From assembly GCA_949987565.1 (NCBI GenBank), contig OX465110.1, positions 1,522,233 through 1,586,232 of the forward strand: a DNA stretch of 64,000 bases, in the 5' to 3' direction. The DNA is from Luidia sarsii (taxonomy: Eukaryota; Echinodermata; Asteroidea; Paxillosida; Luidiidae). This document shows positions 19,819 to 64,000 of this stretch, piece after piece (position 1 is the first letter of the stretch; each line of letters opens with the position of its first letter). The notes under the pieces are model-generated. The model did not search any database, was not told the DNA's origin, and was given only the letters and a program-made list of their open reading frames with translations. Made by a program: the position numbers and the translations under genes.

Positions 19819-20754
19819 CTAATTTTCGTCTGGCTTGAGACGATTGGCGTACATCTTGTCATAGTAGGGCATAGAGAAATCGACACATCGAAGGATGTCT
19901 GGAGACAAAGACGAGCGATCTGGTAGACCACCAGGCTTCAGGAAGCAGGTACTGTCTACCGCCTTCTTGTAGTACTTTCCTATTTCATTCCCCTCTAACA
20001 TCATTTTAGACGCCACCCACTGCTTGGTGATGGCTTCCCCTGCCTCCCACTTCAGAATCTTCTCGTCAAAGGGTAGGCCGGTGGTCTTGAAGAGGGCAGA
20101 CAGGGTCCCTCTAGGATTGCCAAGAAGGTCATCAGAATCGATAATGATCGCCTCTTGATCGTGCACCTCCTTCAGATAATCCATCAGATCATACATCTCC
20201 TTGAAGCCACGGCCCGATGGGCACAACGAAGTTGGGAGCTTGTCAAAGTCGTAAGACTCTATCGGCATCTTTAACGCAAACTGGAGCATCTTCTTCCAAG
20301 ACGGGAAGACCTTGAGAGGGTGGCGGATGAGGAACAGATGCCGGTAGCCGCCGGGGATGGAATCTTCGTGGGACGTGACCGCGTAGGCCATGTCCTTGCA
20401 GAAGACCAGTCTCTTGCCCGTGTGTGCTTGTTCCAGCTGCTCCTTCACCCACTCGTAGCTGCACTGAGACGAGTCGAACGCTAGAGACGTCTCTTCCTTC
20501 TTACTGGTCGAAACGGTGGGGTTGCTCTCAACGAATTTCTCCACAATCTCCTTCTTTATGCACTCACGAGCAGTCTTGTTGACCCTGTCGGGACCCAGGT
20601 GATGCGCGCAGATATACGGTTCGAAGAATACCTTGGAACCTTCCACGAAGCTGAGGCACTTGGACAGGACAGTGGAGGTGGAGCGGGCGACAGTCCACAT
20701 CAGAAGTCGAACCTGCCTCTCCGAGGGTGCACCGTGCGTATCGTCAGCCATCAT
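19819..20754 (-). CDS. P-loop sulfotransferase-like protein, array copy 1 (subfamily I)
   Basis: Intronless 311-codon frame. Residues 15-35 carry a 5'-phosphosulfate-loop-like segment (LLMWTVARSTSTVLSKCLS). Residues 138-153 (RHLFLIRHPLKVFPSW) resemble the 3'-phosphate-binding strand of sulfotransferases, and 203-236 carry IIIDSDDLL...GTLSALF...LPFDEKILKW, typical of the C-terminal part of such domains. There is no signal peptide or membrane helix, so a cytosolic enzyme is expected. By family knowledge such proteins bind PAPS or a related nucleotide; the acceptor is unknown. The same fold forms the N-terminal part of plant proteins named branched-chain-aminotransferase-like, so annotation pipelines may use that misleading name. 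Within the array this copy is the most distinct of subfamily I in residues 154-164 and 237-264. Its 3' flank is unlike that of all other copies. The start is the first of two adjacent Met codons, conserved across copies. Confidence 0.88.
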   Translation of the reverse strand: MMADDTHGAPSERQVRLLMWTVARSTSTVLSKCLSFVEGSKVFFEPYICAHHLGPDRVNKTARECIKKEIVEKFVESNPTVSTSKKEETSLAFDSSQCSYEWVKEQLEQAHTGKRLVFCKDMAYAVTSHEDSIPGGYRHLFLIRHPLKVFPSWKKMLQFALKMPIESYDFDKLPTSLCPSGRGFKEMYDLMDYLKEVHDQEAIIIDSDDLLGNPRGTLSALFKTTGLPFDEKILKWEAGEAITKQWVASKMMLEGNEIGKYYKKAVDSTCFLKPGGLPDRSSLSPDILRCVDFSMPYYDKMYANRLKPDEN

Positions 20755-20830
20755 TCTCTTTCAAAGAGAGGGGAAAGAAGGACGAATATCAAAGTTTGCT
20801 CATTGGACAATCTAGCATCCTCATCAAAGT
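20755..20830 (-). promoter_or_regulatory. Conserved 5' flank of subfamily I genes with splice-acceptor-like tract and CCAAT box
   Basis: On the minus strand, pyrimidine-rich CTTTCCCCTCTCTTTGAAAG lies 3 bases before the ATG and looks like a 3' splice site; in copies 3-6 it ends GAAACAG. About 50 bases upstream of the ATG is TTGTCCAATGAG with a CCAAT box. All six subfamily I copies keep both. If the acceptor is used, the CCAAT is intronic and not promoter-proximal. Confidence 0.4.
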
Positions 20831-21007
20831 TACACCAAGGAACCGAAACAAACACCGAAACAAAGAGGAAACATTGAAAAAAGATGTCACGATGACAACA
20901 TCATTCTAATTATGTCGGATTGAATTTTGAATATTTTATTTTCCCCACAGACTTTGTACACAAAATGTGGACGTGCGCTTTTAGGAAAATGTTAAGGCCG
21001 TTTAGTA

Positions 21008-21980
21008 TCCTCCAGTAATCGGTTTTCGACGATATAAGGACTTTTCTTCAAACTGAACAATGTGGACGAAAGTATCACACTAAAAGAGGTCTCAGTCACC
21101 TTCTCCACACCACAGACTATTAGAATAATCATAGGGAAGGTTAATCAAGCCTGTCACTTCCGTAAGATTACCCGGTTTTGTTGACGTCCGCGGCGCATCG
21201 CGCAGTAAGCGCCGTGACCTATTTTCGTCGGTGGTGTTTAGTAAGGTGTCCCAGTGCAGCCAAACGCAAAATAAATTCTTAAAATAACTCTGGTTTTTTT
21301 TTTCGACACTGCTTCTAACACGTTCCTCAAATCATTCATAATTTATGCTTAAAACGTATTGGTCTGGTTGATGTCTTCTTTTGTGACGTTTAAAAAAAAT
21401 CCACAATCCTCTTTCTCACTGCTTCTTCAGTTATGACCTTTCCCTATGTCACTCCAGAGACACATTTCCTCCTTCTTGGTACTTTCTCTAGCTGCCGTTT
21501 TATTTTTTTTCATTTTTTATAAAAGCCTATCGGGCCATGTTACTTTTTGTCTTTAAATAATAATATATATATTTTTTTTAATTATATAAGCGAGACGCCA
21601 TATAGGAGCCGCCATAGTTTTTACCCAGAACGGACTGCCTCAAGTAGCGTGATATATTTTTTTTTTCTACGGATGTTGGGGTTTGTTATGGTACACTCAG
21701 ATTTTTTTAGGACCAACAATAAAGAAAACTGGAGCTTCGAAGCAACTGCCAATTTTATACCTAGGAAAATAGACCCCAAAAGAGCAACCTTTTTAATCAC
21801 ACGAGTTTGGCCTACTGGAAAAGCCTTAACTTTCCATATTTTCGGTGACGGACAAGAGCAGGAAACCAACTGTAAGATACAAAGTCTGAGATCGTTATAC
21901 GGACTTGTTTTCATCGTGCGATGTGAGTTAGAAGGCTAAGCGCCGAAAACGTGTACCGTCGAAAACGGGGGTTCCCACGA
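21008..21980. mobile_element. ~970-bp TA-flanked element with short inverted ends, inserted upstream of copy 1
   Basis: Sister units (for example near 35788) read TTTAGTACCATCATTCC where this unit reads TTTAGTA, 973 bp of extra DNA, then TACCATTAG. The insert is therefore flanked by TA on both sides. The ends share GTTTTCGACG in inverted orientation in the same register (TC at the tip, GTTTTCGACG from the fourteenth base). A 130-codon plus-strand frame at 21547-21939 has no recognised domain. TA duplication suggests the Tc1/mariner group, but no DDE transposase is visible, so it would be non-autonomous. Confidence 0.6.
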
Positions 21981-24477: not shown

Positions 24478-24481
24478 CAAT

Positions 24482-26680: not shown

Positions 26681-27616
26681 CTAATTTTCGTCTGGCTTGA
26701 GACGATTGGCGAACATCTTGTCATAGTAGGGCATAGAGACATCGACACATCGAAGGATGTCTGGAGACAAAGACGAGCGATCTGGTAGACCACCAGGCTT
26801 CAGGAAGCACGAGCTATCGAATGCATTCTTGAAGTACCCTGCAGTCTCATTTCCTCTTAAAAATTCTTTAGACACCACCCACTGCTTGGAAACAGCGCCC
26901 CCTGTGTCCCATTTCAGAATCTTCTCGTCAAAGGGTAGGCCGATGGTCTTGAAGAGGGCAGACAGGGTCCCTTTAGGGTTGGCAAGAAGGTCATCGGAAT
27001 CGATAATGATCGCTTCTTCATCATGAACCTCCTTCAGATAATCCATCAGATCATACAACTCCTTGAAGCCACGGCCCGATGGGCACAATGAAGTTGGGAG
27101 CTTGTCAAAGTCGTAAGACTCTATCGGCATCATGACCGCAAACTTAAAGATCTTCTTCCAAGACGGGAAGACCTTGAGAGGGTGTCGGATGAGGAACAGA
27201 TGCCGGTAGCCGCCGGGGATGGAATCTTCGTGGGACGTGATCGCGTAGGCCATGTCCTTGCAGAAGACCAGTCTCTTGCCCGTGTGTGCTTGTTCCAGCT
27301 GCTCCTTCACCCACTCGTAGCTGCACTGAGACGAGTCGAACGCCAGAGACGTCTCGTCCTTCTTACTGGTCGAAACGGTGAGGTTGCTTTCGTAGAATTT
27401 CTCCACAATATCCTTCTTTATGCACTCACGGGCTGCCTTGTTGGCCCTGTCGGGACCCAGTTGATGCGCGCATGTATACGGTTCGAGGAATACCTTGGAA
27501 CCTTCCACGAAGCTGAGGCACTTGGACAGGACAGTGGAGGTGGAGCGGGCGACAGTCCACATCAGAAGTCGAACCTGCCTCTCCGAGGGTGCTCCGTGCG
27601 TATCGTCAGCCATCAT
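26681..27616 (-). CDS. P-loop sulfotransferase-like protein, array copy 2 (subfamily I)
   Basis: Uninterrupted 311-codon frame with the same loop-like RSTSTVLSK and IRHPLKVFPSW segments as copy 1. It shares MWTVARS at the nucleotide loop with copy 1, where copies 3 and onward have a Pro in place of the Ala. The patch regions differ from copy 1: EPYTCAHQLGPDRANKAARE near 45-64, KKIFKFAVMMP near 154-164, and DTGGAVSKQWVVSKEFLRG near 237-255. The sequence around the nucleotide loop and the last 40 residues is almost unchanged. A probable ATTAAA poly(A) signal follows about 60 nt after the stop. The 5' flank lacks the 973-bp TA element of copy 1 and goes into a short foldback-like array. Acceptor substrate unknown. 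Confidence 0.88.
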   Translation of the reverse strand: MMADDTHGAPSERQVRLLMWTVARSTSTVLSKCLSFVEGSKVFLEPYTCAHQLGPDRANKAARECIKKDIVEKFYESNLTVSTSKKDETSLAFDSSQCSYEWVKEQLEQAHTGKRLVFCKDMAYAITSHEDSIPGGYRHLFLIRHPLKVFPSWKKIFKFAVMMPIESYDFDKLPTSLCPSGRGFKELYDLMDYLKEVHDEEAIIIDSDDLLANPKGTLSALFKTIGLPFDEKILKWDTGGAVSKQWVVSKEFLRGNETAGYFKNAFDSSCFLKPGGLPDRSSLSPDILRCVDVSMPYYDKMFANRLKPDEN

Positions 27617-27823
27617 TCTCTTTCAAAGAGAGGGGAAAGAAGGACGAATATCAAAGTTTGCTCATTGGACAATCTAGCATCCTCATCAAGCCCTACTGGC
27701 GCTGTGTTTCACAAACACACAGACTTCTAGTTCCAGTTCTTAGCCCGGTGATCTCTACTCATAGTTTCTCGTCTGTTTCAATTTCAAAAGGTCAGGGGCT
27801 ATAGAACTAGCTGCTCTTTGAAT

Positions 27824-31688: not shown

Positions 31689-32624
31689 CTAATTTTCGTC
31701 TGGCTGGAGACGATTGGCGTACATCTTGTCATAGTAGGGCATAGAGACATCGACACATCGAAGGATGTCTGGAGACAAAGACGAGCGATCTGGTAGACCA
31801 CCAGGCTTCAGGAAGCAGGAGCTATCGAATGCATTCTTGTAGTACCCTGCAGTCTTATTTCCTTCTGAAAATTCGTTAGACACCACCCACTGCTTGGAAA
31901 CAGCGCCCCCTCCCTCCCATTTCAGAATCTTCTCGTCAAAGGGTAGGCCGATGGTCTTGAAGAGGGCAGACAGGGTCCCTTTAGGGTTGGCAAGAAGGTC
32001 ATCGGAATCGATAATGATCGCTTCTTCATCGTGAACCTCCTTCAGATAATCCATCAGATCATACAACTCCTTGAAGCCACGGCCCGATGGGCACAATGAA
32101 GTTGGGAGCTTGTCAAAGTCGTAAGACTCTATCGGCATCATGACCGCATACTGGACCATCTTCTTCCAAGACGGGAAGACCTTGAGAGGGTGTCGGATGA
32201 GGAACAGATGCCGGTAGCCGCCGGGGATGGAATCTTCGTGGGACGTGATTGCGTAGGCCGCGTCCTTGCTGAAGACCAATCTCTTGCCCGTGTGTGCTTG
32301 TTCCAGCTGCTCCTTCACCCACTCGTAGCTGCACTGAGACGAGTCGAACGCCAGAGACGTCTCGTCCTTTTTACTGATCGAAACTGTTGGGTTGCTCTCG
32401 AAAAATGTCTCCACAATCTCCTTCTTTATGAACTCACGGGCTGCCTTGTTGGCCCTGTCGGGACCCAGGTGATGCGCGCATGCATACAGTTCCAAAAATA
32501 CCTTGGAACCTTCCACGAAGCTGAGGCACTTGGACAGGACAGTGGAGGTCGACCGTGGAACATTCCACATCATGAGTCGAACCTGCTTCTCCGAGGGTGC
32601 ACCGTGCGTATCGTCAGCCATCAT
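31689..32624 (-). CDS. P-loop sulfotransferase-like protein, array copy 3 (subfamily I)
   Basis: Uninterrupted 311-codon frame. The nucleotide loop reads MWNVPRSTSTV. Where copies 1 and 2 have EPY near residue 45 it has ELYACAHHLG, a change shared with copies 4 and 6. It is almost the same protein as those two, differing at about eight sites including Phe65, Ser119 (Cys in the others), Asn250 and Ser253. The 3' flank is the long ~2-kb block also found after copy 2. The ATTAAA ~60 nt after the stop is kept. Confidence 0.88.
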   Translation of the reverse strand: MMADDTHGAPSEKQVRLMMWNVPRSTSTVLSKCLSFVEGSKVFLELYACAHHLGPDRANKAAREFIKKEIVETFFESNPTVSISKKDETSLAFDSSQCSYEWVKEQLEQAHTGKRLVFSKDAAYAITSHEDSIPGGYRHLFLIRHPLKVFPSWKKMVQYAVMMPIESYDFDKLPTSLCPSGRGFKELYDLMDYLKEVHDEEAIIIDSDDLLANPKGTLSALFKTIGLPFDEKILKWEGGGAVSKQWVVSNEFSEGNKTAGYYKNAFDSSCFLKPGGLPDRSSLSPDILRCVDVSMPYYDKMYANRLQPDEN

Positions 32625-33106
32625 TCTGTTTCAAAGAGAGGGGAAAGAAGGACGAATATCAAAGTTTGCTCATTGGACAATCTAGCATCCTCATCAAAAT
32701 TACACCAAGGAAAAACACAGAACCAAAGAGTAAACCTTAAAAAAAGATGTCATGCTGACTACATCATGTGATGTATTATTGAAAATTGAATGTTTTATTT
32801 TCCCCACAGCCTTTGTACACAAAATGTTGACGTGCGCTTTTAGGAAAGTGTAAAGGCCGTTTAGTATACCATCATTCCTTAAAAAAAAAAGTCAACATGA
32901 TGCAGAAAAGCCCTACCGGCGCTGTGTTCCACAGACAGACAGACTTCTAGTTCCACTTCTCGGCCCGGTGATCTCTACTCTTAGTTTCTCGTCTGTTACA
33001 GAGTACGAAATGCCAGCGGCTATAGGCCTAGCTGCTCTTTGAATCAGGCCCGAAACTTGAGTGTCGCCCTGCGTGGCTAGCGATTTTTTTTTATTGATCA
33101 TGATTT

Positions 33107-34612: not shown

Positions 34613-35548
34613 CTAATTTTCGTCTGGCTTGAGACGATTGGCGAACATCTTGTCATAGTAGGGCATAGAGACATCGACACATCGAAGGATGTCTGGAGAC
34701 AAAGACGAGCGATCTGGTAGACCACCAGGCTTCAGGAAGCAGGAGCTATCGAATGCATTCTTGTAGTACCCTGCAGTCTTATTTCCTTCTAAAAATTCTT
34801 TAGACACCACCCACTGCTTGGAAACAGCGCCCCCTCCCTCCCATTTCAGAATCTTCTCGTCAAAGGGTAGGCCGATGGTCATGAAGAGGGCAGACAGGGT
34901 CCCTTTAGGGTTGGCAAGAAGGTCATCGGAATCGATAATGATCGCTTCTTCATCGTGAACCTCCTTCAGATAATCCATCAGATCATACAACTCCTTGAAG
35001 CCACGGCCCGATGGGCACAATGAAGTTGGGAGCTTGTCAAAGTCGTAAGACTCTATCGGCATCATGACCGCATACTGGACCATCTTCTTCCAAGACGGGA
35101 AGACCTTGAGAGGGTGTCGGATGAGGAACAGATGCCGGTAGCCGCCGGGGATGGAATCTTCGTGGGACGTGATTGCGTAGGCCGCGTCCTTGCAGAAGAC
35201 CAGTCTCTTGCCCGTGTGTGCTTGTTCCAGCTGCTCCTTCACCCACTCGTAGCTGCACTGAGACGAGTCGAACGCCAGAGACGTCTCGTCCTTTTTACTG
35301 ATCGAAACTGTTGGGTTGCTCTCAAAAAATGTCTCCACAATCTCCTTCTTTATGCACTCACGGGCTGCCTTGTTGGCCCTGTCGGGACCCAGGTGATGCG
35401 CGCATGCATACAGTTCCAAAAATACCTTGGAACCTTCCACGAAGCTGAGGCACTTGGACAGGACAGTGGAGGTCGACCGTGGAACATTCCACATCATGAG
35501 TCGAACCTGCTTCTCCGAGGTTGCACCGTGCGTATCGTCAGCCATCAT
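34613..35548 (-). CDS. P-loop sulfotransferase-like protein, array copy 4 (subfamily I)
   Basis: Uninterrupted 311-codon frame. It differs from copy 6 at one residue only (Thr10 here, Pro10 there), including the shared unusual Met223 in LFMTIGLPF where all other copies have Lys. Patches read ELYACAHHLG, KKMVQYAVMMP and EGGGAVSKQWVVSKEFLEG. Copy 5 lies between these near-twins, so they arose by a multi-gene duplication or by gene conversion. The ATTAAA after the stop is kept. Confidence 0.88.
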   Translation of the reverse strand: MMADDTHGATSEKQVRLMMWNVPRSTSTVLSKCLSFVEGSKVFLELYACAHHLGPDRANKAARECIKKEIVETFFESNPTVSISKKDETSLAFDSSQCSYEWVKEQLEQAHTGKRLVFCKDAAYAITSHEDSIPGGYRHLFLIRHPLKVFPSWKKMVQYAVMMPIESYDFDKLPTSLCPSGRGFKELYDLMDYLKEVHDEEAIIIDSDDLLANPKGTLSALFMTIGLPFDEKILKWEGGGAVSKQWVVSKEFLEGNKTAGYYKNAFDSSCFLKPGGLPDRSSLSPDILRCVDVSMPYYDKMFANRLKPDEN

Positions 35549-37322: not shown

Positions 37323-38258
37323 CTAATTTTCGTCTGGCTGGAGACGATTGGCGAACATCTTGTCATAGTAGGGCATAGAGACATCGACACATCGAAGGAT
37401 GTCTGGAGACAAAGACGAGCGATCTGGTAGACCACCAGGCTTCAGGAAGCACGAGCTATCGAATGCATTCTTGAAGTACTCCTCAGTCTCATTTCCTTCT
37501 AACATTTCTTTAGACATCACCCACTGCTTGGAAACAGCGCCCCCTGCCTCCCATTTCAGAATCTTCTCGTCAAAGGGTAGGCCGATGGTCTTGAAGAGGG
37601 CAGACAAGGTCCCTTTAGGGTTGGCAAGAAGGTCATCTGAATCGATAATGATCGCCTCTTGATCGTGCACCTCCTTCAGATAAACCATCAGATCATACAT
37701 CTCCTTGAAGCCACGGCCCGATGGGCACAACGAACTTGGGAGCTTGTCAAAGTCGTAAGACTCTACAGGCATCTTGATCTTAAACTGGACCATCTTCTTC
37801 CAAGACGGGAAGACCTTGAGAGGGTGTCGGATGAGGAACAGATGCCGGTAGCCGCCGGGGATGGAATCTTCGTGGGACGTGATCGCGTAGGCCATGTCCT
37901 TGCAGAAGACCAGTCTCTTGCCCGTGTGTGCTTGTTCCAGCTGCTCCTTCACCCACTCGTAGCTGCACTGAGACGAGTCGAACGCCAGAGACGTCTCGTC
38001 CTTCTTACTGGTCGAAACGATGGGGTTGCTTTCAGATAATTTCTCCACAATCTCCTCCGTTTTACACTCGGGAGCGGTCTTATTGACCCTGTCGGTACCA
38101 AGGCTATATGCACATACATACGGTTCGAGGAATACCTTGGAACCTTCCACGAAGCTGAGGCACTTGGACAGGACAGTGGAGGTCGACCGTGGAACAATCC
38201 ACATCATGAGTCGAACCTGCTTCTCCGAGGGTGCACCGTGCGTATCGTCAGCCATCAT
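37323..38258 (-). CDS. P-loop sulfotransferase-like protein, array copy 5 (subfamily I)
   Basis: Uninterrupted 311-codon frame and the most divergent of copies 2-6 in the variable patches: EPYVCAYSLGTDRVNKTAPE near 45-64, CKTEEIVEKLSESNPIVSTS near 65-84, KKMVQFKIKMPVESYDFDKL near 154-173 and EAGGAVSKQWVMSKEMLEG near 237-255. The nucleotide loop reads MWIVPRSTSTV. The first and second halves of the frame are otherwise near-identical to its neighbours. Its 3' flank is of a different type from copies 3, 4 and 6 and matches that of copy 7. Confidence 0.88.
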   Translation of the reverse strand: MMADDTHGAPSEKQVRLMMWIVPRSTSTVLSKCLSFVEGSKVFLEPYVCAYSLGTDRVNKTAPECKTEEIVEKLSESNPIVSTSKKDETSLAFDSSQCSYEWVKEQLEQAHTGKRLVFCKDMAYAITSHEDSIPGGYRHLFLIRHPLKVFPSWKKMVQFKIKMPVESYDFDKLPSSLCPSGRGFKEMYDLMVYLKEVHDQEAIIIDSDDLLANPKGTLSALFKTIGLPFDEKILKWEAGGAVSKQWVMSKEMLEGNETEEYFKNAFDSSCFLKPGGLPDRSSLSPDILRCVDVSMPYYDKMFANRLQPDEN

Positions 38259-40242: not shown

Positions 40243-41178
40243 CTAATTTTCGTCTGGCTTGAGACGATTGGCGAACATCTTGTCATAGTAGGGCATAGAG
40301 ACATCGACACATCGAAGGATGTCTGGAGACAAAGACGAGCGATCTGGTAGACCACCAGGCTTCAGGAAGCAGGAGCTATCGAATGCATTCTTGTAGTACC
40401 CTGCAGTCTTATTTCCTTCTAAAAATTCTTTAGACACCACCCACTGCTTGGAAACAGCGCCCCCTCCCTCCCATTTCAGAATCTTCTCGTCAAAGGGTAG
40501 GCCGATGGTCATGAAGAGGGCAGACAGGGTCCCTTTAGGGTTGGCAAGAAGGTCATCGGAATCGATAATGATCGCTTCTTCATCGTGAACCTCCTTCAGA
40601 TAATCCATCAGATCATACAACTCCTTGAAGCCACGGCCCGATGGGCACAATGAAGTTGGGAGCTTGTCAAAGTCGTAAGACTCTATCGGCATCATGACCG
40701 CATACTGGACCATCTTCTTCCAAGACGGGAAGACCTTGAGAGGGTGTCGGATGAGGAACAGATGCCGGTAGCCGCCGGGGATGGAATCTTCGTGGGACGT
40801 GATTGCGTAGGCCGCGTCCTTGCAGAAGACCAGTCTCTTGCCCGTGTGTGCTTGTTCCAGCTGCTCCTTCACCCACTCGTAGCTGCACTGAGACGAGTCG
40901 AACGCCAGAGACGTCTCGTCCTTTTTACTGATCGAAACTGTTGGGTTGCTCTCGAAAAATGTCTCCACAATCTCCTTCTTTATGCACTCACGGGCTGCCT
41001 TGTTGGCCCTGTCGGGACCCAGGTGATGCGCGCATGCATACAGTTCCAAAAATACCTTGGAACCTTCCACGAAGCTGAGGCATTTGGACAGGACAGTGGA
41101 GGTCGACCGTGGAACATTCCACATCATGAGTCGAACCTGCTTCTCCGAGGGTGCACCGTGCGTATCGTCAGCCATCAT
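40243..41178 (-). CDS. P-loop sulfotransferase-like protein, array copy 6 (subfamily I)
   Basis: Uninterrupted 311-codon frame, one residue different from copy 4. Its 5' and 3' flanks also match those of copy 4 closely over about 2.9 kb. It is the last subfamily I coding copy before the switch to subfamily II. Confidence 0.88.
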   Translation of the reverse strand: MMADDTHGAPSEKQVRLMMWNVPRSTSTVLSKCLSFVEGSKVFLELYACAHHLGPDRANKAARECIKKEIVETFFESNPTVSISKKDETSLAFDSSQCSYEWVKEQLEQAHTGKRLVFCKDAAYAITSHEDSIPGGYRHLFLIRHPLKVFPSWKKMVQYAVMMPIESYDFDKLPTSLCPSGRGFKELYDLMDYLKEVHDEEAIIIDSDDLLANPKGTLSALFMTIGLPFDEKILKWEGGGAVSKQWVVSKEFLEGNKTAGYYKNAFDSSCFLKPGGLPDRSSLSPDILRCVDVSMPYYDKMFANRLKPDEN

Positions 41179-42992: not shown

Positions 42993-43919
42993 CTAATTGT
43001 CGTCTGGCTTGAGACGATTGGCGAACATCTTGTCATAGTAGGGCATAGAGACATCGACACATCGAAGGATGTCTGGAGACAAAGACGAGCGATCTGGTAG
43101 ACCACCAGGCTTCAGGAAGCACGAGCTATCGAATGCATTCTTGTAGTACTCCCCGAGATTGTTGATAGCTAATATTGCGTTAGACGCCACCCACTGCTTG
43201 GAAACAGCGTCCCCTCCCTCCCATTTCAGAATCTTCTCGTCAAAGGGTAGGCCGATGGTCTTGAAGAGGGCAGACAGGGTCCCTCTAGGATTGGCAAGAA
43301 GGTCATCGGAATCGATAATGACCGCCTCTTGATCGTGCACCTCCTTCAGATAATCCATCAGATCATACAACTCCTTGAAGCCACAGCCTTTCGGGAATAC
43401 TGGAGGTGGTATATCGTCGAGGTTGTACTCATCTATGGGAACTTTCATTCCGTACTGATAAGACTGTTTCCAAGACGGGAAGACCTTTAGAGGGTGGCGG
43501 ATGAGGAACAGATGCCGGTAGCCGCTGGGGATGGAATCTTCGTGGGACGTGACCGAGTAGGCCATGTCCTTGCAGAAGACCAGTTTCTTGCCCGTGTGTG
43601 CTTGTTCCAGCTGCTCCTTCACCCACTCGTAGCTGCACTGAGACGAGTCGAATGACGAAGACGATCCACCGTCGACCGAGTCATCAGCCAAGAAATTTTC
43701 AAACAGCTGCCTTATTTTTTCATCAAGAAAACTTGGAGTTTCGTAGTCGAGCCTATCCGGGCCTACGATTATCGCAGCAATGTACGGTTCGAAGAACACC
43801 TTGGAATCCTCCACGAAGCTGAGACATTTGGACAGGACAGTGGAGGTCGACCGTGGAACAGTCCATATCATAAGTCGAACCTGCTTCTGTGAGGAGGTCG
43901 ATTTCTTCTCATCAGCCAT
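42993..43919 (-). CDS. P-loop sulfotransferase-like protein, array copy 7 (subfamily II)
   Basis: Uninterrupted 308-codon frame starting MADEKKSTSSQKQVRLMIW. Compared with subfamily I it lacks one N-terminal Met and differs over about residues 45-90 (EPYIAAIIVGPDRLDYETPS, then an acidic Ser-rich stretch ending GGSSSSFDSSQ) and near 150-175 (KQSYQYGMKVPIDEYNLDDI). The IRHPLKVFPSW, SDDLLANPRGTLSALF and C-terminal segments are as in subfamily I. A 241-bp 5' intron (43920-44160) is likely, with donor GTAAGT and acceptor CAG directly before the ATG. Its 3' flank is of the copy 5 type, so coding type and flank type are mixed here. Confidence 0.88.
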   Translation of the reverse strand: MADEKKSTSSQKQVRLMIWTVPRSTSTVLSKCLSFVEDSKVFFEPYIAAIIVGPDRLDYETPSFLDEKIRQLFENFLADDSVDGGSSSSFDSSQCSYEWVKEQLEQAHTGKKLVFCKDMAYSVTSHEDSIPSGYRHLFLIRHPLKVFPSWKQSYQYGMKVPIDEYNLDDIPPPVFPKGCGFKELYDLMDYLKEVHDQEAVIIDSDDLLANPRGTLSALFKTIGLPFDEKILKWEGGDAVSKQWVASNAILAINNLGEYYKNAFDSSCFLKPGGLPDRSSLSPDILRCVDVSMPYYDKMFANRLKPDDN

Positions 43920-44574: not shown

Positions 44575-44890
44575 TTCAGACCAGACCAGTCTGGACTAGA
44601 CCGGACTAGACCGGACTAGACCGGACTAGACCGGACTAGACCGGACTTGACCGGACTAGACCGGACTAGACCGGACTAGACCGGACTAGACCGGACTAGA
44701 CCGGACTAGACCGGACTAGACCGGACTAGACCGGAGTAGACCGGACTAGACCGGACTTGACCGGACTAGACCGGACTAGACCGGACTAGACTGGACTAGA
44801 CTGGACTAGACCAGACTAGACCGGACTAGACTGGACTAGACCAACACAGATCATATCACACCGGACCAGACCAGACCACACCAGACCACA
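44575..44890. repeat. 10-bp GACCGGACTA minisatellite
   Basis: About 25 units of GACCGGACTA with rare variants (GACTTGA, GGAGTAGA). The array then breaks up into CCAGACCACA-type sequence up to about 44990. Confidence 0.95.
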
Positions 44891-44974
44891 CCACACTACA
44901 CTACACTGAGTACACTACACCAGACCAGACCGGACCGGACCAGACCGGACCGGACCAGACCAGACCAGACCAGA

Positions 44975-45530
44975 CCAGTATAATCCAGACCAGTATAATC
45001 CAGACCAGTATAATCCAGACCAGTCTAACCCAGACCAATCTAATCCAGACCAGTCTAATCCAGACCAGTCTAATCCAGACCAGTCTAATCCAGACCAGTC
45101 TATATAATCCAGACCAGTCTAATCCAGACCAGTCTAATCCAGACCAGTCTAATCCAGACCAGTCTAATCCAGACCAGTCTAATCCAGACCAGTCTAATCC
45201 AGACCAGTCTAATCCAGACCAGTCTAATCCAGACCAGTCTAATCCAGACCAGTCTAATCCAGACCAGTCTAATCCAGACCAGTCTAATCCAGACCAGTCT
45301 AATCAAGACCAGTCTAATCAAGACCAGTCTAATCAAGACCAGTCTAATCAAGACCAGTCTAATCAAGACCAGTCTAATCCAGACCAGTCTAATCCAGACC
45401 AGTCTAATCTAGACCAGTCTAATCCAGACCAGTCTAATCCAGACCAGTCTAACCCAGACCAGTCTAATCCAGACCAGTCTAACCCAGACCAGTCTAATCC
45501 AGACCAGACCAGTTTAATCCAGACTAGACT
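44975..45530. repeat. 15-bp AGACCAGTCTAATCC minisatellite
   Basis: More than 30 units of AGACCAGTCTAATCC. A short block has AATCAAG in place of AATCCAG. The minus strand stays open as Ile-Arg-Leu-Val-Trp repeats, which is compositional. Confidence 0.95.
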
Positions 45531-45589
45531 GGACTAGACCAGACCAGACCAGTCTAATCCAGACCAGACCATGGGGGACAGAGCAGATC

Positions 45590-46481: not shown

Positions 46482-47408
46482 CTAATTTTCGTCTGGCTTG
46501 AGACGATTGGCAAACATCTTGTCATAGTAGGGCGTAGAGACATCGACACATCGAAGGATGTCTGGAGACAAAGACGAGCGATCTGGTAGACCACCAGGCT
46601 TCAGGAAGCATGAGCTATCGAATGCATTCTTGTAGTACTCCCCAAGCTTGTTTCCAGCCTGTACTGCGTTACACGCCACCCACTGCTTGGAAACAGCGCC
46701 CCCTGCCTCCCAGTTAAGAATGTCCTTTTCAAAGGGTAGGCCAATGGTCTTGAAGAGGGCAGACAGGGTCCCTTTAGGGTTTGCAAGAAGGTCATCGGAA
46801 TCGATAATGATCGCCTCTTGATCGTGCACCTCCTTCAGATAGTCCATCAGATCATACAACTCCTTGAATCCACGGCCTTTCGGGAGTAATGATTCTGGTA
46901 GATCGTCGAAATTGTACTCATCTATAGCCGGCTTCACCCAAAAACGAAAGGTCTTCTTCCAAGACGGGAAGACCTTGAGAGGGTGGCGGATGAGGAACAG
47001 ATGCCGGTAGCCGCTGGCGATGGAATCTTTATGAGATGTAACCACGTACGCCATGTCCTTGCAGAAGACCAGTCTCTTGCCCGTGTGTGCTTGTTCCAGC
47101 TGCTCCTTCACCCACTCGTAGCTGCACTGAGACGAGTCGAATGACGAAGACGATCCACCGTCGGCCGAGTCACCAGCCGAATGGTTTTCAAACATCTCCC
47201 TTATTTTTTCATCTAGAAAACTCGGGGTTTCGTAGTCGACCCTGTCTGGACCAAGTATCATTGCAGCAGCGTACGGTTCGAAGAACACCTTGGAATCCTC
47301 CACGAAGCTGAGACATTTGGACAGGACAGTGGAGGTCGACCGTGGAACAGTCCATATCATAAGTCGAACCTGCTTCTGTGAGGAGGTCATTTTCTTCTCA
47401 TCAGCCAT
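46482..47408 (-). CDS. P-loop sulfotransferase-like protein, array copy 8 (subfamily II)
   Basis: Uninterrupted 308-codon frame starting MADEKKMTSSQKQ. Patches: EPYAAAMILGPDRVDYETPS near 44, KKTFRFWVKPAIDEYNFDDL near 150 and EAGGAVSKQWVACNAVQAG near 234. It is unique in the array in having LPFEKDILNW where every other copy has LPFDEKIL(K/N)W, and in DSIASGY for DSIP(S/G)GY. The 5' intron (47409-47650) is conserved. The 3' flank has a different AT-rich sequence from subfamily I. Confidence 0.88.
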   Translation of the reverse strand: MADEKKMTSSQKQVRLMIWTVPRSTSTVLSKCLSFVEDSKVFFEPYAAAMILGPDRVDYETPSFLDEKIREMFENHSAGDSADGGSSSSFDSSQCSYEWVKEQLEQAHTGKRLVFCKDMAYVVTSHKDSIASGYRHLFLIRHPLKVFPSWKKTFRFWVKPAIDEYNFDDLPESLLPKGRGFKELYDLMDYLKEVHDQEAIIIDSDDLLANPKGTLSALFKTIGLPFEKDILNWEAGGAVSKQWVACNAVQAGNKLGEYYKNAFDSSCFLKPGGLPDRSSLSPDILRCVDVSTPYYDKMFANRLKPDEN

Positions 47409-48049: not shown

Positions 48050-48440
48050 AAAGACCAGACCAGACCAGTCTGGACTAGACCGAACCATAGGAAGGGCAGG
48101 GTAGATCACGTCACGTCATACAGTCACGTCACCTCACATCATGTCACCTCACGTCACGTTACATCACGTCACATCACGTTACATCACGTCACGTCACGTC
48201 ACGTCACATCACGTTACCTCACGTCACGTCACATCACGTCACATCATGTCACGTCACGTTACATCACGTCACATCACATCACGTGACATCACGTCGCGTC
48301 ACGTCACATCACGTCACATTACGTCATATTACGTCACCTCACCTCACGTCACGTCATACAGTCACGTCACACACGTCACATCACGTCGCGTCACGTCACC
48401 TCACGTCACATTACGTCACGTCATGTCATATCACGTCAAT
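48050..48440. repeat. CCAGAC stretch plus CACGTCA array, spacer of copies 8/9
   Basis: Starts with AGACCAGACCAGTCTGGACT, a common GGAAGGGCAGGGTAGATCACG link, then some 60 units of five bases (TCACG, TTACG, TCACA). Matches 58127-58510 almost exactly, including the link and many unit variants. Confidence 0.92.
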
Positions 48441-49213: not shown

Positions 49214-50140
49214 CTAATTGTCGTCTGGCTTGAGACGATTGGCGAACATCTTGTCATAGTAGGGCATAGAGAAATCGACACATCGAAGGATGTCTGGAGA
49301 CAAAGACGAGCGATCTGGTAGACCACCAGGCTTCAGGAAGCACGAGCTATCAAATGCATTCTTGTAGTACTCCCCAAGCTTGTTTCCAGCCTGTGCTGCG
49401 TTACACACCACCCACTGCTTGGAAACAGCGCCCCCTGCCTCCCACTTCAGAATCTTCTCGTCAAAGGGTAGGCCGATGGTCTTGAAGAGGGCAGACAGGG
49501 TCCCTTTAGGGTTGGCAAGAAGGTCATCGGAATCGATAATGATCGCCTCTTGATCGTGCACCTCCTTCAGATAATCCATCAGATCATACAACTCCTTGAA
49601 TCCACGGCCTTTCGGGAGTAATGATTCTGGTAGATCGTCGAAATTGTACTCATCTATAGCCGGCTTCACCCAAAAACGAAAGGTCTTCTTCCAAGACGGG
49701 AAGACCTTGAGAGGGTGGCGGATGAGGAACAGATGCCGGTAGCCGCTGGGGATGGAATCTTTATGAGATGTAACCACGTACGCCATGTCCTTGCAGAAGA
49801 CCAGTCTCTTGCCCGTGTGTGCTTGTTCCAGCTGCTCCTTCACCCACTCGTAGCTGCACTGAGACGATTCGAATGACGAAGACGATCCACCGTCGGCCGA
49901 GTCACCAGCCGAATGGTTTTCAAACATCTCCCTTATTTTTTCATCTAGAAAACTCGGGGTTTCGTAGTCGACCCTGTCTGGACCAAGTATCATTGCAGCA
50001 GCGTACGGTTCGAAGAACACCTTGGAATCCTCCACGAAGCTGAGACATTTGGACAGGACAGTGGAGGTCGACCGTGGAACAGTCCATATCATAAGTCGAA
50101 CCTGCTTCTGTGAGGAGGTCATTTTCTTCTCATCAGCCAT
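49214..50140 (-). CDS. P-loop sulfotransferase-like protein, array copy 9 (subfamily II)
   Basis: Uninterrupted 308-codon frame very close to copy 8, with the same EPYAAAMILGPDRV and KKTFRFWVKPAIDEYNF patches. It has the usual LPFDEKILKW, WVVCNAAQAG near 243, and Glu in SSFESSQ where the others have Asp. The 5' intron donor is GTCAGT in place of GTAAGT. AATAAA lies about 45 nt after the stop on the minus strand. Its upstream flank breaks off at about 50512, where a foreign block begins. Confidence 0.88.
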   Translation of the reverse strand: MADEKKMTSSQKQVRLMIWTVPRSTSTVLSKCLSFVEDSKVFFEPYAAAMILGPDRVDYETPSFLDEKIREMFENHSAGDSADGGSSSSFESSQCSYEWVKEQLEQAHTGKRLVFCKDMAYVVTSHKDSIPSGYRHLFLIRHPLKVFPSWKKTFRFWVKPAIDEYNFDDLPESLLPKGRGFKELYDLMDYLKEVHDQEAIIIDSDDLLANPKGTLSALFKTIGLPFDEKILKWEAGGAVSKQWVVCNAAQAGNKLGEYYKNAFDSSCFLKPGGLPDRSSLSPDILRCVDFSMPYYDKMFANRLKPDDN

Positions 50141-52270: not shown

Positions 52271-52283
52271 TATACTTATTTAA

Positions 52284-55200: not shown

Positions 55201-56469
55201 GGCAGCGGAGGCTTGGGCACCGGAGGCTTGGGCACCGGAGGCTTGGGCACCGGAGGCTTGGGCACCAGAGGCTTGGGCAGCTGAGGCTTGGGCAGCTGAG
55301 GCTTGGGCAGCTGAGGCTTGGGCAGCTGAGGCTTGGGCACCGGAGGCTTGGGCACCGGAGGCTTGGGCACCGGAGGCTTGGGCACCGGAGGCTTGGGCAC
55401 CGGAGGCTTGGGCACCGGAGGCTTGGGCACCGGAGGCTTGGGCACTGGAGGCTTGGGCACCGGAGGCTTGGGCACCGGAGGCTTGGGCACCGGAGGCTTG
55501 GGCAGCTGAGGCTTGGGCACCGGAGGCTTGGGCACCGGAGGCTTGGGCACCGGAGGCTTGGGCACCGGAGGCTTGGGCAGCGGAGGCTTGGGCAGCGGAG
55601 GCTTGGGCACCGGAGGCTTGGGCAGCGGAGGCTTGGGCATCTGAGGCTTGGGCAGCTGAGGCTTGGGCACCAGAGGCTTGGGCACCGGAGGCTTGGGCAC
55701 CGGAGGCTTGGGCAGCGGAGGCTTGGGCAGTGGAGGCTTGGGCACCGGAGGCTTGGGCAGCGGAGGCTTGGGCAGCTGAGGCTTGGGCACCGGAGGCTTG
55801 GGCACCGGAGGCTTTGGAATGGAGCCACTGACGACAGCAGATTGAGACAGATTGGCTTTCTTACGCTTTCGCCGCACCAATATCTGCAGTTCCTTGGGAA
55901 CTCTCCGCTCAGCTGGCACTCCAGGGATGACCCGCACAAGAACCCTCTCGACCACTTTCTGTAGTGCTGCTCCAAACCTGATGTTGCCATCAAAGCTCAG
56001 ATGCAACCCATCTGCTGCGAAGCAACTTCGCCTAAAGATGTCATCGGTGATGTCGACAAATTTGACACCAGCAAACTTCAGGCACAATTTGGCTAAGTGA
56101 ACATTATAAATTCTAGCCGCTTCAGCTAGTGATGGATCGTCAAAGCGGGGTAACATCCCACTGACGATGATGCTGGCATCGGGAAACCTTTCCCTGGTTT
56201 TCTAGAGGAGACCTGCATAGTCCTTCAGGAAAGGATGCAAAAATGACCTGCCTAGATCATTAGTGCCAACATGTAGCACTACAACATGTGGCTCGTCGCT
56301 GAACGTTATCTCCTCCACAGTACCTCGCAGGCGACGTAGAGTGCTCCCTGGTTTAGTTAGGACCTCTGGAATAAACCAGTCGCTATAAAGATTTCCGGGC
56401 AGGTACCTGGTGATGGAGTCACCAAAAATCTGTACACGAAACCAGGGAAGGTCACTCTGAGTGCTGGGC
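52284..56469 (-). pseudogene. SGNH/GDSL-type hydrolase domain fused to a ~1170-residue Lys-Pro-rich repeat, with one internal stop
   Basis: On the minus strand, a likely splice acceptor (CAACTTACAG, ending at 56470) opens a frame that runs to TGA at 52284. It has a single in-frame TAG at 56202-56204. Block I (IFGDSITRYL, GDS at 56415-56423), block III (VLHVGTNDLG, near 56267) and block V (ADGLHLSFDG) of the SGNH hydrolase family are in the same frame. They supply the nucleophile Ser, oxyanion Gly/Asn and the Asp-x-x-His pair, so the fold is complete but for the stop. Then comes a basic linker (RRKRKKANLS) and the KPPVP/KPQLP repeat. SGNH domains hydrolyse esters and also occur in some invertebrate mobile elements; the role here is unknown. 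Starting at the internal Met (56156) would lose GDS and GTND. The stop may be a true null, a polymorphism or a sequence error. Upstream exons are not found. Confidence 0.6.
52291..55815. repeat. 15-bp minisatellite, ~235 units in one unbroken register
   Basis: Unit GGCTTGGGCACCGGA with main variants GGCTTGGGCAGCTGA, CACCAGA, CAGCGGA, and rare GAGACTTG, GAGTCTTG and GCTTTGGC. All length changes are multiples of 15, so both strands stay open: Ala-Pro-Glu-Ala-Trp on plus, Lys-Pro-Pro-Val-Pro and Arg-Cys-Pro-Ser-Leu on minus. The minus frame continuous with the SGNH domain is the likely coding one; the plus-strand frame is a shadow. Confidence 0.97.
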
Positions 56470-58080: not shown

Positions 58081-58510
58081 TCCACTATATTAAAAAGGGA
58101 TCTAACCAGAAAAGACCAGACCAGACCAGTCTGGACTAGACCGAACCATAGGAAGGGCAGGGTAGATCACGTCACGTCATACAGTCACGTCACCTCACAT
58201 CATGTCACCTCACGTCACGTTACATCACGTCACATCACGTCACGTTACATCACGTCACGTCACGTCACGTCACATCACGTTACCTCACGTCACGTCACAT
58301 CACGTCACATCATGTCACGTCACGTTACATCACGTCAAATCACATCACGTGACATCACGTCGCGTCACGTCACATTACGTCATATTACGTCACCTCACCT
58401 CACGTCACGTCATACAGTCACGTCACATCACGTCACACACGTCACATCACGTCGCGTCACGTCACCTCACGTCACATTACGTCACGTCATGTCATATCAC
58501 GTCAATTAAA
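58081..58510. repeat. CCAGAC stretch plus CACGTCA array, spacer of copies 9/10
   Basis: Nearly the same as 48019-48440 with a few unit gains and losses. It marks where the array unit resumes after the foreign block. Confidence 0.92.
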
Positions 58511-59263: not shown

Positions 59264-60190
59264 CTAATTTTCGTCTGGCTTGAGACGATTGGCGTACATC
59301 TTGTCATAGTAGGGCATAGAGACATCGACACATCGAAGGATGTCTGGAGACAAAGACGAGCGATCTGGTAGACCACCAGGCTTCAGGAAGCACGAGCTAT
59401 CTAGTGCATTCTTATAGTACCCCCCAAACTTGTTTCCAGCTAATATTGCGTTAGATGTCACCCACTTCTTGGAAACAGCATCCCCTGTCTCCCAGTTCAG
59501 AATCTTCTCGTCAAAGGGTAGGCCGATGGTCTTGAAGAGGGCCGACAGGGTCCCTCTAGGATTGGCAAGAAGGTCATCGGAATCGATAATGATCGCTTCT
59601 TCATCGTGCACCTCCTTCAGATAATCCATCAGATCATACGACTCCTTGAAGCCACAGCCTTTCGGGAGTAATGGTTCTGGTATATCCTCGAAGTTGTAAT
59701 CATCTATAGCCGGCTTCACCCAAAAACGATACAGGTTCTTCCAAGACGGGAAGACCTTGAGAGGGTGGCGAATAAGGAACAGATGCCGGTAGCCGCCGGG
59801 GATGGAATCTTCGTGGGACGTGATTGCGTAGGCCATGTCCTTGCAGAAGACCAGTCTCTTGCCCGTGTGTGCTTGTTCCAGCTGCTCCTTCACCCACTCG
59901 TAGCTGCACTGAGACGAGTCAAATGATGAAGACGATCCACCGTCGACCGAGTCATCAGCCAAGAAATTTTCAAACAACCCCCTTATTTTTTCATCGAAGA
60001 AACTTGGAGTTTCGTAGTCGACCCTTTCGGGGCCTAGCATTATCGCAGCAGCGTACGGTTCGAAGAATACCTTGGAATCCTCCACGAAGCTGAGGCATTT
60101 GGACAGGACAGTGGAGGTCGACCGTGGAACATTCCACATCATAAGTCGAACCTGCTTCTGTGAGGAGATCGATTTCTTCTCATCAGCCAT
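59264..60190 (-). CDS. P-loop sulfotransferase-like protein, array copy 10 (subfamily II)
   Basis: Uninterrupted 308-codon frame starting MADEKKSISSQKQVRLMMW. It mixes features of both subfamilies: the loop reads MWNVPRSTSTV as in copies 3, 4 and 6, and ITSHEDSIPGGYRH is the subfamily I form. The first patch is EPYAAAIMLGPERVDYETPS, then KNLYRFWVKPAIDDYNFEDI and ETGDAVSKKWVTSNAILAG. This suggests gene conversion from subfamily I. The 241-bp 5' intron (60191-60431) is conserved, and AATAAA follows the stop by about 45-50 nt on the minus strand. Confidence 0.88.
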   Translation of the reverse strand: MADEKKSISSQKQVRLMMWNVPRSTSTVLSKCLSFVEDSKVFFEPYAAAIMLGPERVDYETPSFFDEKIRGLFENFLADDSVDGGSSSSFDSSQCSYEWVKEQLEQAHTGKRLVFCKDMAYAITSHEDSIPGGYRHLFLIRHPLKVFPSWKNLYRFWVKPAIDDYNFEDIPEPLLPKGCGFKESYDLMDYLKEVHDEEAIIIDSDDLLANPRGTLSALFKTIGLPFDEKILNWETGDAVSKKWVTSNAILAGNKFGGYYKNALDSSCFLKPGGLPDRSSLSPDILRCVDVSMPYYDKMYANRLKPDEN

Positions 60191-60810: not shown

Positions 60811-61145
60811 AAGACCAGACCAGACCAGTCTGGACTAGACCGAACCATAGGAAGGGCAGGGTAGATCACGTCACGTCACATCCGTCACATCACGTCACAT
60901 CACGTCACCTCACATCACGTCATGTCACGTCACGTCACGTCACGTCACATCATTTCACATCACGTCACGTTACATCACGTCACATCACGTTGCGTCACGT
61001 CACATCACGTCACTCACATCACGTCACTCACATCACGTCACATCACGTCGCGTCACGTCTCATCATGTCACTCACATCGCGTCACATCACGTCGCTTTAC
61101 GTGACATCACGTCACATTACGTCACGTCACGTCATGTCACGTCAG
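60811..61145. repeat. CCAGAC stretch plus CACGTCA array, spacer of copies 10/11
   Basis: Same link (GGAAGGGCAGGGTAGATCACG type) as at 48090, but the five-base units are rearranged, with several CTCACATCACG insertions. It is preceded by the sequence shared with copies 8 and 9. Confidence 0.9.
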
Positions 61146-62884: not shown

Positions 62885-63092
62885 ATCAAAACCAGACAAG
62901 ACCAGACCAGACCAGACCAGACCAGACCAGACCAGACCAGACCAGACCAGACCAGACCAGACCAGACCAGACCAGTCTGGACTAGACCGAACCATAGGGA
63001 GGGCAGGGTAGATCACGTCACGTCACGTCACGTCACGTCACGTCACGTCACGTCACGTCACGCCACATCACGTCACGCCACGTCACGTCAAT
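62885..63092. repeat. CCAGA pentamer plus CACGT array upstream of copy 11
   Basis: About 15 CCAGA units, the GGACTAGACCGAACCATAGG link, then about 15 CACGT units. It is the most regular and shortest form of this paired array. Confidence 0.93.
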
Positions 63093-63879
63093 TCAAATCA
63101 GTCTTTGTCGGTGTCAGTGGAGTTTTAAAATCCGCCCAAATATTGATTCAAAGGTGAACAGAATATTTAATGGATTTTGTAAATTCCTCTCTGTCATTTC
63201 ATGTTAGGAATATGGAAGCTTCTTAATAAGAACAATCAATTGTAAAAAACTATCGGCAAAGAAGTTCTACTATCTCCTTGTTTGGAACAAACATTCAATG
63301 GTATTGTATACACCACGCATTGCCTTTAGATAATCAAGACCCATAAATCCATACACCATATGATCCCTGAATAGCTCTATAGCATATCACTAGCATAAAT
63401 GAACGGTATACTGTTATGTTTGATTCAAGCGAATGTTCACTACTTTTTGCAAAAAAAATATAAGCTGGATCGTGCTGGTATCAACATCAGACTCAACCTA
63501 AGCTTCTTATGTAACAAAAGTCAAATCGTGAAAAAATATGAAGTTGCTTTTCGAACTTTAGACCAACGTTGATAAAAAAAACCGTCAGTTATGGGTTAAC
63601 AACAGCATCAAAACTATATATTATTGCTCAAAATCATTCACCAACGTTCAATACACTTTACATTTCTGATAAAACTAGCTACTGACCAAGTATTGAAACA
63701 AAATTGACTGTCATTTCTGGTCTGAGGTTTTACAATAAAGGCTGCATGTTAAGCAAGAGTGCTGTCAACCACCTGTGAGTGGAGAGTGGTTAGAAATTAT
63801 CAGAATTTAATGAAAAACCTTTGTTGAAAAACCTTTGATTCTGCCACCAATAGTCTTAAAGCACTACGACCTGGGTCCT

Positions 63880-64000
63880 CTAATTTTCGTCTGGCTTGAG
63901 ACGATTGGCGTACATCTTGTCATAGTAGGGCATAGAGACATCGACACATCGAAGGATGTCTGGAGACAAAGACGAGCGATCTGGTAGACCACCAGGCTTC
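63880..64000 (-). CDS. P-loop sulfotransferase-like protein, array copy 11, C-terminal 39 residues only
   Basis: The window ends inside the gene. The visible part runs from KPGGLPDRSSLSPDILRC to NRLKPDEN and the TAG, and it matches the other copies closely (MYANRL form as in copies 1, 3 and 10). The subfamily cannot be told from this part. The array therefore continues beyond the window. Confidence 0.85.
   Translation of the reverse strand, partial: KPGGLPDRSSLSPDILRCVDVSMPYYDKMYANRLKPDEN

What the first reader, a model, noticed from the sequence alone, without database searches (positions are those of the whole stretch)
19819..64000. Eleven-gene sulfotransferase-like array with frozen cores and variable patches
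Ten complete copies keep near-identical segments around the nucleotide loop (residues 15-44), residues 93-153 and 181-235, and the last 45 residues, but differ strongly in three patches (about 45-90, 154-180, 237-265). In sulfotransferases the loops outside the PAPS site shape the acceptor pocket, so the pattern suggests diversification of substrate choice on a homogenised scaffold. Seen: the patch pattern. Known: P-loop sulfotransferase layout. Inferred: acceptor diversity.
Basis: partly seen in the sequence, partly recalled or inferred. Interest (0 to 1): 0.75.

Follow-up and report, generated by a model that had tools for sequence, protein, structure and literature searches.

The report
Starfish sulfotransferase array with mosaic loops
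A starfish chromosome carries a row of sixteen intact sulfotransferase genes whose catalytic cores are kept alike by gene copying, while three loop regions that probably touch the target molecule stay different and seem to have mixed between copies.

Summary
It has ten intact frames plus an eleventh cut by its edge. The host genome, a starfish by protein relatives, has 16 in a row.

The cores are not alike through protein selection alone. Between subgroups, same-amino-acid codons differ at 0.01-0.09 in three cores (0.13-0.25 in the fourth) but 0.22-0.57 in patches 1 and 2. Against chromosome-C4 paralogs the same cores differ at 0.35-0.68. Spacers of subgroups A and B are mostly unalignable. 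So gene conversion or unequal crossover homogenises the cores. The patches keep older histories that conflict with each other.

Positive selection is mostly unsupported. Omega in patches 1 and 2 is 0.41-0.58. Only patch 3 (0.86-1.07) gives a site-model signal, at residue 252 (p=0.002 with 16 genes; p=0.42 with 10).

All ten window copies keep the candidate cofactor residues, and the model has a sulfotransferase fold. Acceptor-loop diversification on a conversion-homogenised scaffold is likely, but pocket contact and acceptors were not tested.

The parts
19819..20754 (-). g1, sulfotransferase, 311 aa, subgroup A
26681..27616 (-). g2, 311 aa, subgroup A
31689..32624 (-). g3, 311 aa, subgroup A
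34613..35548 (-). g4, 311 aa, subgroup A
37323..38258 (-). g5, 311 aa, subgroup A, own patch 1
40243..41178 (-). g6, 311 aa, subgroup A, almost identical to g4
42993..43919 (-). g7, 308 aa, subgroup B coding sequence with an A-type 3' spacer
46482..47408 (-). g8, 308 aa, subgroup B
49214..50140 (-). g9, 308 aa, subgroup B
59264..60190 (-). g10, 308 aa, subgroup B
63883..63999 (-). g11, C-terminal 39 residues only; the whole gene is G000:C12:1586115-1587038
20485..20622 (-). g1 patch 1 (alignment columns 45-90)
20215..20295 (-). g1 patch 2 (columns 154-180)
19957..20049 (-). g1 patch 3 (columns 236-266)
27347..27484 (-). g2 patch 1
27077..27157 (-). g2 patch 2
26819..26911 (-). g2 patch 3
32355..32492 (-). 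g3 patch 1
32085..32165 (-). g3 patch 2
31827..31919 (-). g3 patch 3
35279..35416 (-). g4 patch 1
35009..35089 (-). g4 patch 2
34751..34843 (-). g4 patch 3
37989..38126 (-). g5 patch 1
37719..37799 (-). g5 patch 2
37461..37553 (-). g5 patch 3
40909..41046 (-). g6 patch 1
40639..40719 (-). g6 patch 2
40381..40473 (-). g6 patch 3
43659..43790 (-). g7 patch 1
43389..43469 (-). g7 patch 2
43131..43223 (-). g7 patch 3
47148..47279 (-). g8 patch 1
46878..46958 (-). g8 patch 2
46620..46712 (-). g8 patch 3
49880..50011 (-). g9 patch 1
49610..49690 (-). g9 patch 2
49352..49444 (-). g9 patch 3
59930..60061 (-). g10 patch 1
59660..59740 (-). g10 patch 2
59402..59494 (-). g10 patch 3

Best explanation
This is a tandem array of PAPS-dependent sulfotransferases (Pfam Sulfotransfer_5) in a starfish, undergoing partial concerted evolution. 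Shown: the coding cores are nearly identical across old subgroups, far below their neutral yardsticks, as gene conversion or unequal crossover would make them, while patches 1 and 2 keep old divergence and all three patches have histories that conflict with each other and with the cores. Inferred: the cores carry PAPS binding and catalysis, and the patches are the three loops that gate the acceptor pocket in sulfotransferases. The copies would then be enzymes with one cofactor site and different acceptor preferences. The patches escape homogenisation because they are less constrained and too diverged to pair, because converted loops are selected against, or both; at patch 3 there is also some selection for change. 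Likely acceptors are small hydroxylated metabolites. Starfish steroid and saponin alcohols are candidates, unproven.
Against: Omega in patches 1 and 2 is below 1, so relaxed constraint explains much of their change. The 10-gene site test of patch 3 is not significant (p=0.42). With 16 genes one core (267-311) has omega 0.73, not distinguishable from 1. Of four other clusters, C2a/b shows no core-patch contrast. In C4a/b and in the two C7 pairs tested (a-b, b-c; a-c was not tested) the pooled silent contrast is not significant, although the amino-acid contrast is. Patch 3 silent divergence is low between subgroups (0.09-0.15), like the cores. One 20-codon stretch of core (102-121) is also fairly alike at silent sites against C4 (0.18), so some silent constraint there is possible. 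Foldseek TM-scores for the best matches are moderate (0.33-0.51 by query length in the 26 rows at E<=0.001). No expression or activity data. No orthologous array from a sister species was available as DNA.
Confidence: 0.72

Rival explanations
1. Relaxed constraint plus homology-dependent conversion only. The patches are weakly constrained surface or loop stretches. They drift until too diverged to pair, conversion then stops there, and silent divergence piles up. No selection for new acceptors is needed.
For: Omega in patches 1 and 2 is 0.41-0.58, between most core values and 1. Patch 1 omega does not differ from the cores (p=0.35). The patches vary across the family in other starfish. The published theory says pairing ends as divergence grows (passages of PMC3924837).
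Against: Patch 3 has low silent but high replacement divergence (silent 0.09-0.15, identity 0.60-0.67 between subgroups) and a site with omega above 1 in 6 of 6 tree or taxon variants with the larger gene set. Patch trees conflict, as if patches had moved between subgroups, so pairing there was not always absent.
Confidence: 0.35
2. Selection alone: strong purifying selection on the cores, including synonymous constraint, and positive selection in the patches, without conversion.
For: Core omega is 0.27-0.38, except 267-311 with 16 genes (0.73). Core stretch 102-121 is fairly alike at silent sites even against C4 (0.18).
Against: Silent sites in the cores as a whole are 0.35-0.68 different from the C4 paralogs. 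The same core segment is silent-poor in one subgroup and not in another (15-44: AA dS 0.198, BB 0.046; 91-153: AA 0.039, BB 0.173). Segment trees conflict.
Confidence: 0.05
3. Recent tandem duplication with patches imported from elsewhere, such as other paralogs or another haplotype, rather than cores homogenised.
For: The g3-g4 and g5-g6 spacers are 98.4% identical, yet g3 and g5 differ at 13 of 29 synonymous and 18 of 109 nonsynonymous sites in patch 1. The patch 1 donor of g5 is not among the 16 copies (nearest 0.83).
Against: The A-B contrast needs homogenised cores, because A-B spacers are mostly unalignable. Both directions can act together.
Confidence: 0.25
4. Assembly artefact: collapsed or chimeric copies.
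For: Near-identical copies such as g4/g6 and g11/g12 exist.
Against: Spacers differ between copies, none of the 16 has an internal stop, and C11 and C4 show core-patch contrasts independently.
Confidence: 0.04

Closest known systems
Human and hominoid SULT1A1-1A4 paralogs (PMC555591, passages read)
   Same: Recent sulfotransferase duplicates with replacements clustering at the acceptor site and channel; SULT1A residue 146 controls substrate choice.
   Different: Different Pfam family; 4 copies instead of 16; the term gene conversion has 0 occurrences in that main text. Here cores are homogenised and patch trees conflict.
Divergence peaks in red/green opsin genes and theory of duplicates under gene conversion (PMC3924837, passages read)
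   Same: Conversion keeps duplicates alike except where difference is kept; a peak of divergence marks the target.
   Different: Here three variable patches in one single-exon gene (two of them silent-divergence peaks), in an array of 16 enzymes, with incongruent trees between the patches.
Gating loops L1-L3 of SULT1A1/1A3 and AtSOT18 (PMC10706399 and PMC5482895, passages read)
   Same: Three flexible loops around a conserved PAPS site; in AtSOT paralogs loop 2 is called highly heterogeneous.
   Different: Correspondence to the three patches here is by order of motifs only; the fold is closer to CurM/OLS and TPST sulfotransferases.
Starfish proteins, many named 'branched-chain-amino-acid aminotransferase-like 1/2' (Patiria, Acanthaster, Asterias)
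   Same: Named starfish hits are 38-58% identical over 81-100% of P0007, carry the Sulfotransfer_5 domain and come several to a contig. In 4 of 6 same-contig sets every patch is less conserved than every core; in the other 2 one patch is not.
   Different: Only protein sequences were available; their names suggest an aminotransferase, but Pfam finds only sulfotransferase domains in the window copies scanned.
Acropora tenuis tandem sulfotransferase expansion (PMC12314368, passages read)
   Same: Marine invertebrate sulfotransferase tandem array.
   Different: PF00685 family; gene conversion is not mentioned (0 occurrences).

Membership tests
Pfam PF19798 Sulfotransfer_5 | HMM score above the curated cut-off of 23.2 bits | tested here: met
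   34.3-44.1 bits in 4 of 4 array proteins scanned; the best stretch covers profile positions 137-224 of 226 only, i.e. the C-terminal part.
P-loop PAPS sulfotransferase fold | Central strands with 5'-PSB and 3'-PSB elements; structural match to solved sulfotransferases | tested here: met
P-loop PAPS sulfotransferase fold | Conserved cofactor-binding and catalytic residues | tested here: met
   R24, S25-T28, E45, K120, R144, S152 identical in 10 of 10 window copies; R24 in 51, S27 in 52, E45 in 51, K120 and R144 in 53, S152 in 52 of 53 aligned proteins. Several positions were picked because one search showed them invariant. Their roles are assigned by motif, from recall.
P-loop PAPS sulfotransferase fold | Transfer of sulfate from PAPS | not testable with these tools
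   Needs an enzyme assay.
Cytosolic SULT family (PF00685 Sulfotransfer_1) | Sulfotransfer_1 domain | tested here: not met
   No Sulfotransfer_1 match at E<=1 in 4 of 4 proteins (the filters drop most matches above about 0.1).
Concerted evolution by gene conversion | Copies more alike than their duplication age, shown by a neutral yardstick | tested here: met
   Core silent difference 0.01-0.09 between subgroups in three of four cores, against mostly unalignable A-B spacers and 0.35-0.68 against C4.
Concerted evolution by gene conversion | Paralogs within a species group together against orthologs of a sister species | not tested
   No sister-species DNA at hand.
Selection-kept divergence peak (opsin type) | Peak of divergence at sites of functional difference | tested here: inconclusive
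   Peaks at patches 1 and 2; patch 3 site signal with 16 genes only; function untested.
Three-loop acceptor gate of SULTs | Variable patches line the acceptor pocket | tested here: inconclusive
   Order relative to the 5'-PSB, 3'-PSB and C-terminal motifs agrees; no coordinates for docking.

The most novel reading that the evidence does not exclude
The array is a combinatorial specificity generator. Conversion erases drift in the catalytic scaffold and at the same time passes the three gate loops between copies as separate cassettes, so new acceptor specificities arise by recombination rather than point mutation, possibly tracking starfish saponin and steroid chemistry.
Probability: 0.2. Interest if true: 0.8.

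Novelty: new variant of a known kind. Interest (0 to 1): 0.5.

Why it matters
Starfish make sulfated steroids and saponins thought to serve defence and digestion; asterosaponins carry a sulfate at C3 (passages of PMC6627624 and PMC6780307). The word sulfotransferase does not occur in either main text. This array offers 16 natural variants on one scaffold. Swapping patches between copies would test directly whether gate loops set acceptor choice, and whether conversion spares or spreads functional loops. It also warns that 'frozen cores with variable patches' is not by itself evidence of selection: silent sites must be examined first.

Tried and rejected
Rejected: purifying or synonymous constraint as the main cause of low core divergence (outgroup control). 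Rejected: positive selection as the general cause of the patches (omega below 1 in patches 1 and 2).

Corrected on the way: pairwise flank profiles beyond about 1.8 kb run into the neighbouring gene, so I dropped those flank totals and used whole spacers instead (global alignment for the six 1.8-2.6 kb spacers of the eleven cut out). Nei-Gojobori dS of 1.6-1.75 in patches is near saturation; I rely on same-amino-acid codon mismatches.

Led nowhere: PDB sequence search with P0007 and with the profile found only CurM/OLS domains as credible relatives. The paper search for TPST catalytic residues gave nothing usable, and the CurM search found no structure paper. Four non-array ORFs gave no Pfam family above cut-off. 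Fold matches other than sulfotransferases were not pursued; deoxynucleoside kinases appear lower in the Foldseek list. Whether canonical SULTs (PF00685) exist in this genome did not complete.

Limits: the codon models are my own code, not PAML. In one search the site models kept branch lengths fixed up to a scale; re-optimised them for patches. AU tests on 27-63 codon segments are rough and uncorrected for number.
Full report
WHAT IS THERE. The window holds ten uninterrupted frames on the minus strand, six of 311 codons and four of 308, and the C-terminal end of an eleventh at its edge. The best named protein relatives are starfish proteins: Patiria, Acanthaster and Asterias hits are 38-58% identical, and one unnamed ENA sequence is 74%. 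When the host-genome search answered, it placed the window at C12:1522233-1586232 of a 471-Mb assembly. It found 16 array genes with no internal stops at C12:1542054-1604028, g1-g13 on the minus and g14-g16 on the plus strand, among 43 protein matches in all. Further relatives lie on C1, C2, C4, C6, C7, C10, C11, C17, C18, C20, C21, C22 and C24, plus one more on C12. The Pfam model itself gives 27 matches, all over its cut-off, a lower bound. 'Single-exon' rests on the open frames; no transcript was examined.

WHY THE CORES ARE ALIKE. If only protein selection froze the cores, silent sites there should still diverge. They hardly do. Among codons for the same amino acid, A and B copies differ at 153 of 2318 (91-153), 147 of 2086 (181-235) and 41 of 1734 (267-311) comparisons. 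In patch 1 they differ at 308 of 593 and in patch 2 at 181 of 444. The core at 15-44 is intermediate (204 of 1010 A-B; 0.13-0.25 over the three subgroup contrasts). The control is the C4 pair of paralogs. Against them the array differs at 0.35-0.68 in the four cores and 0.46-0.63 in the patches, so the cores as a whole carry no strong silent constraint. One 20-codon stretch, 102-121, is at 0.18 even against C4, so some constraint there cannot be excluded. Spacer DNA gives a second yardstick. Four A-type spacers are 92-98% identical to each other over ungapped columns, but 53-58% identical to two B-type spacers even when forced into global alignment, with local blocks at 66-80%. Yet A and B coding cores 181-235 and 267-311 have no fixed difference in 300 columns among the ten window copies. 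AU tests reject another segment's tree in 28 of 42 comparisons with 10 genes and 39 of 42 with 16, at p<0.05, uncorrected. Eight of 45 pairs, and four of 45 on third positions alone, have runs of identity longer than permutation allows after correction. The simplest cause is interlocus gene conversion together with unequal crossover. The boundary between A-type and B-type spacers falls at g7, whose 3' spacer is A-type and whose coding sequence is B, so a crossover or block junction lies in or next to that gene.

WHAT THE PATCHES ARE. Patches 1 and 2 are islands that escaped this process: silent and replacement divergence are both high. Patch 3 is different: between subgroups its silent divergence is low (0.09-0.15) and its replacement divergence high (identity 0.60-0.67). 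One-ratio omega with 10 genes is 0.27-0.30 in the four cores and 0.41, 0.58 and 0.86 in patches 1-3. With 16 genes it is 0.30, 0.38, 0.36 and 0.73 in the cores (the last, 267-311, not distinguishable from 1) and 0.53, 0.46 and 0.91 in the patches; patch 3 runs from 0.91 to 1.07 over tree and taxon variants. Within subgroups of the ten window genes, patch 1 does not differ from the cores (p=0.35), while patches 2 and 3 do (p=0.015 and 0.014). Over all ten genes together, patches 1 and 2 pooled do not differ from the cores (p=0.38) and patch 3 does (p=0.005). Site models give no positive selection in any of 7 segments with 10 genes. With 16 genes only patch 3 responds (likelihood ratio 12.1, p=0.002; 1 of 7 segments). 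Residue 252 (M, F, I, V, A, L or S among copies) has posterior 1.00 in 6 of 6 variants of tree or taxon set, p from 0.0008 to 0.019. Recombination inside the segment could inflate this.

PATCHES MIX. With 16 genes, patch 1 data reject the patch 2 tree (AU p=0.00014), patch 2 data reject the patch 1 tree (p=1.5e-7), and patch 3 data reject both (p=0.004 and 0.0003). Examples: g7 is nearest g12 in patch 1 but g13 in patch 2; g15 is nearest g14 in patch 1, g7 in patch 2 and g5 in patch 3; g14 is nearest g15 in patch 1 but g1 in patch 2. The supports for the conflicting splits are moderate (78 against 97 percent ultrafast bootstrap), and some nearest identities are low (0.72-0.83). So patches have probably moved between copies, as units or by old crossovers. 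With 10 genes the patch trees conflict less: patch 2 data do not reject the patch 1 tree (p=0.13).

REPLICATION. On C11 two paralogs differ at 1 of 201 core residues and 1 of 190 core silent codons, against 23 of 103 and 6 of 74 in the patches (Fisher p=4e-11 and 0.002), while their upstream flanks differ at 52% and their first 800 downstream bases at 24%. On C4 the 181-235 core is 0.98 identical between two genes whose patch 1 is 0.19 identical; its pooled silent contrast is not significant (p=0.79). C7 shows the amino-acid contrast in 2 of 2 pairs tested, the silent contrast in neither. The C2 pair shows neither. In other starfish, every patch is less conserved than every core in 4 of 6 same-contig sets, at the protein level; in Asterias amurensis patch 2 and in Acanthaster patch 3 are exceptions.

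ACCEPTOR LOOPS. Papers on SULT1A1/1A3 and AtSOT18 describe three loops that gate the acceptor site (passages). The three patches follow the same order relative to the motifs: patch 1 after the 5'-phosphosulfate loop and second strand, patch 2 directly after the 3'-phosphate motif, patch 3 before the C-terminal conserved stretch. SULT1A residue 146, which sets substrate preference between 1A1 and 1A3 (PMC555591 passages), lies eight residues after the 3'-motif serine (position 138, recalled). The residue eight after S152 here is 160, which reads A, K, G, W or V among the 16 copies.

FUNCTION. The best reading is a set of small-molecule sulfotransferases with shared chemistry and different acceptors. 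Starfish make sulfated steroids; asterosaponins carry a C3 sulfate (passages). The family also has hits in crinoids and sea urchins, so the acceptor range is probably wider than asterosaponins. Acceptor identity is untested.

NOVELTY. Each ingredient is known: sulfotransferase duplicates with adaptive change at the pocket, loops that gate specificity and divergence peaks under conversion. The rows shown by my searches (capped lists from an open-licence library, seen as listings except where passages are cited) held no title on this starfish family or on conversion-shielded gate loops; several echinoderm genome papers listed there were not opened. I rate it a new variant of a known kind, interest 0.5.

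Noticed in passing
52293-55814: A 15-bp minisatellite (CACCGGAGGCTTGGG, about 235 copies, GC 63-68%) sits between g9 and g10 and is open on both strands (1203 and 1290 codons); Pfam gives only Extensin_1 below cut-off for the minus-strand frame.
   Followed up: partly
48106-48438, 58167-58504, 60866-61144, 63013-63090: TCACG arrays recur in the spacers between g8 and g11.
   Followed up: no
44577-45571: About 1 kb of 10-45 bp CAGACC-type tandem repeats in the g7-g8 spacer.
   Followed up: no
27182-27730, 32190-32771, 35114-35695, 40744-41325: GTG-started antisense open frames of 182-193 codons lie opposite the 5' halves of g2, g3, g4 and g6; the one at 27182 has no Pfam match, the others were not scanned.
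   Followed up: partly
41179-42992: The spacer 3' of g7 (a B gene) is A-type, 92-94% like the g3-g4, g4-g5 and g5-g6 spacers: a crossover or block junction at g7.
   Followed up: partly
L008, L009, L016: g14-g16 lie inverted and read on past the usual stop, ending in NYQELI beyond the common C-terminus.
   Followed up: no
19819-20754: g1 loses 3' similarity to the other copies right after its stop codon.
   Followed up: partly
59-650, 4280-4592, 10286-10656, 11518-12186: The first 19 kb is rich in simple and tandem repeats; most ORFs of 130 codons or more there overlap such repeats. Two were scanned with Pfam without a match; spliced genes were not sought.
   Followed up: no
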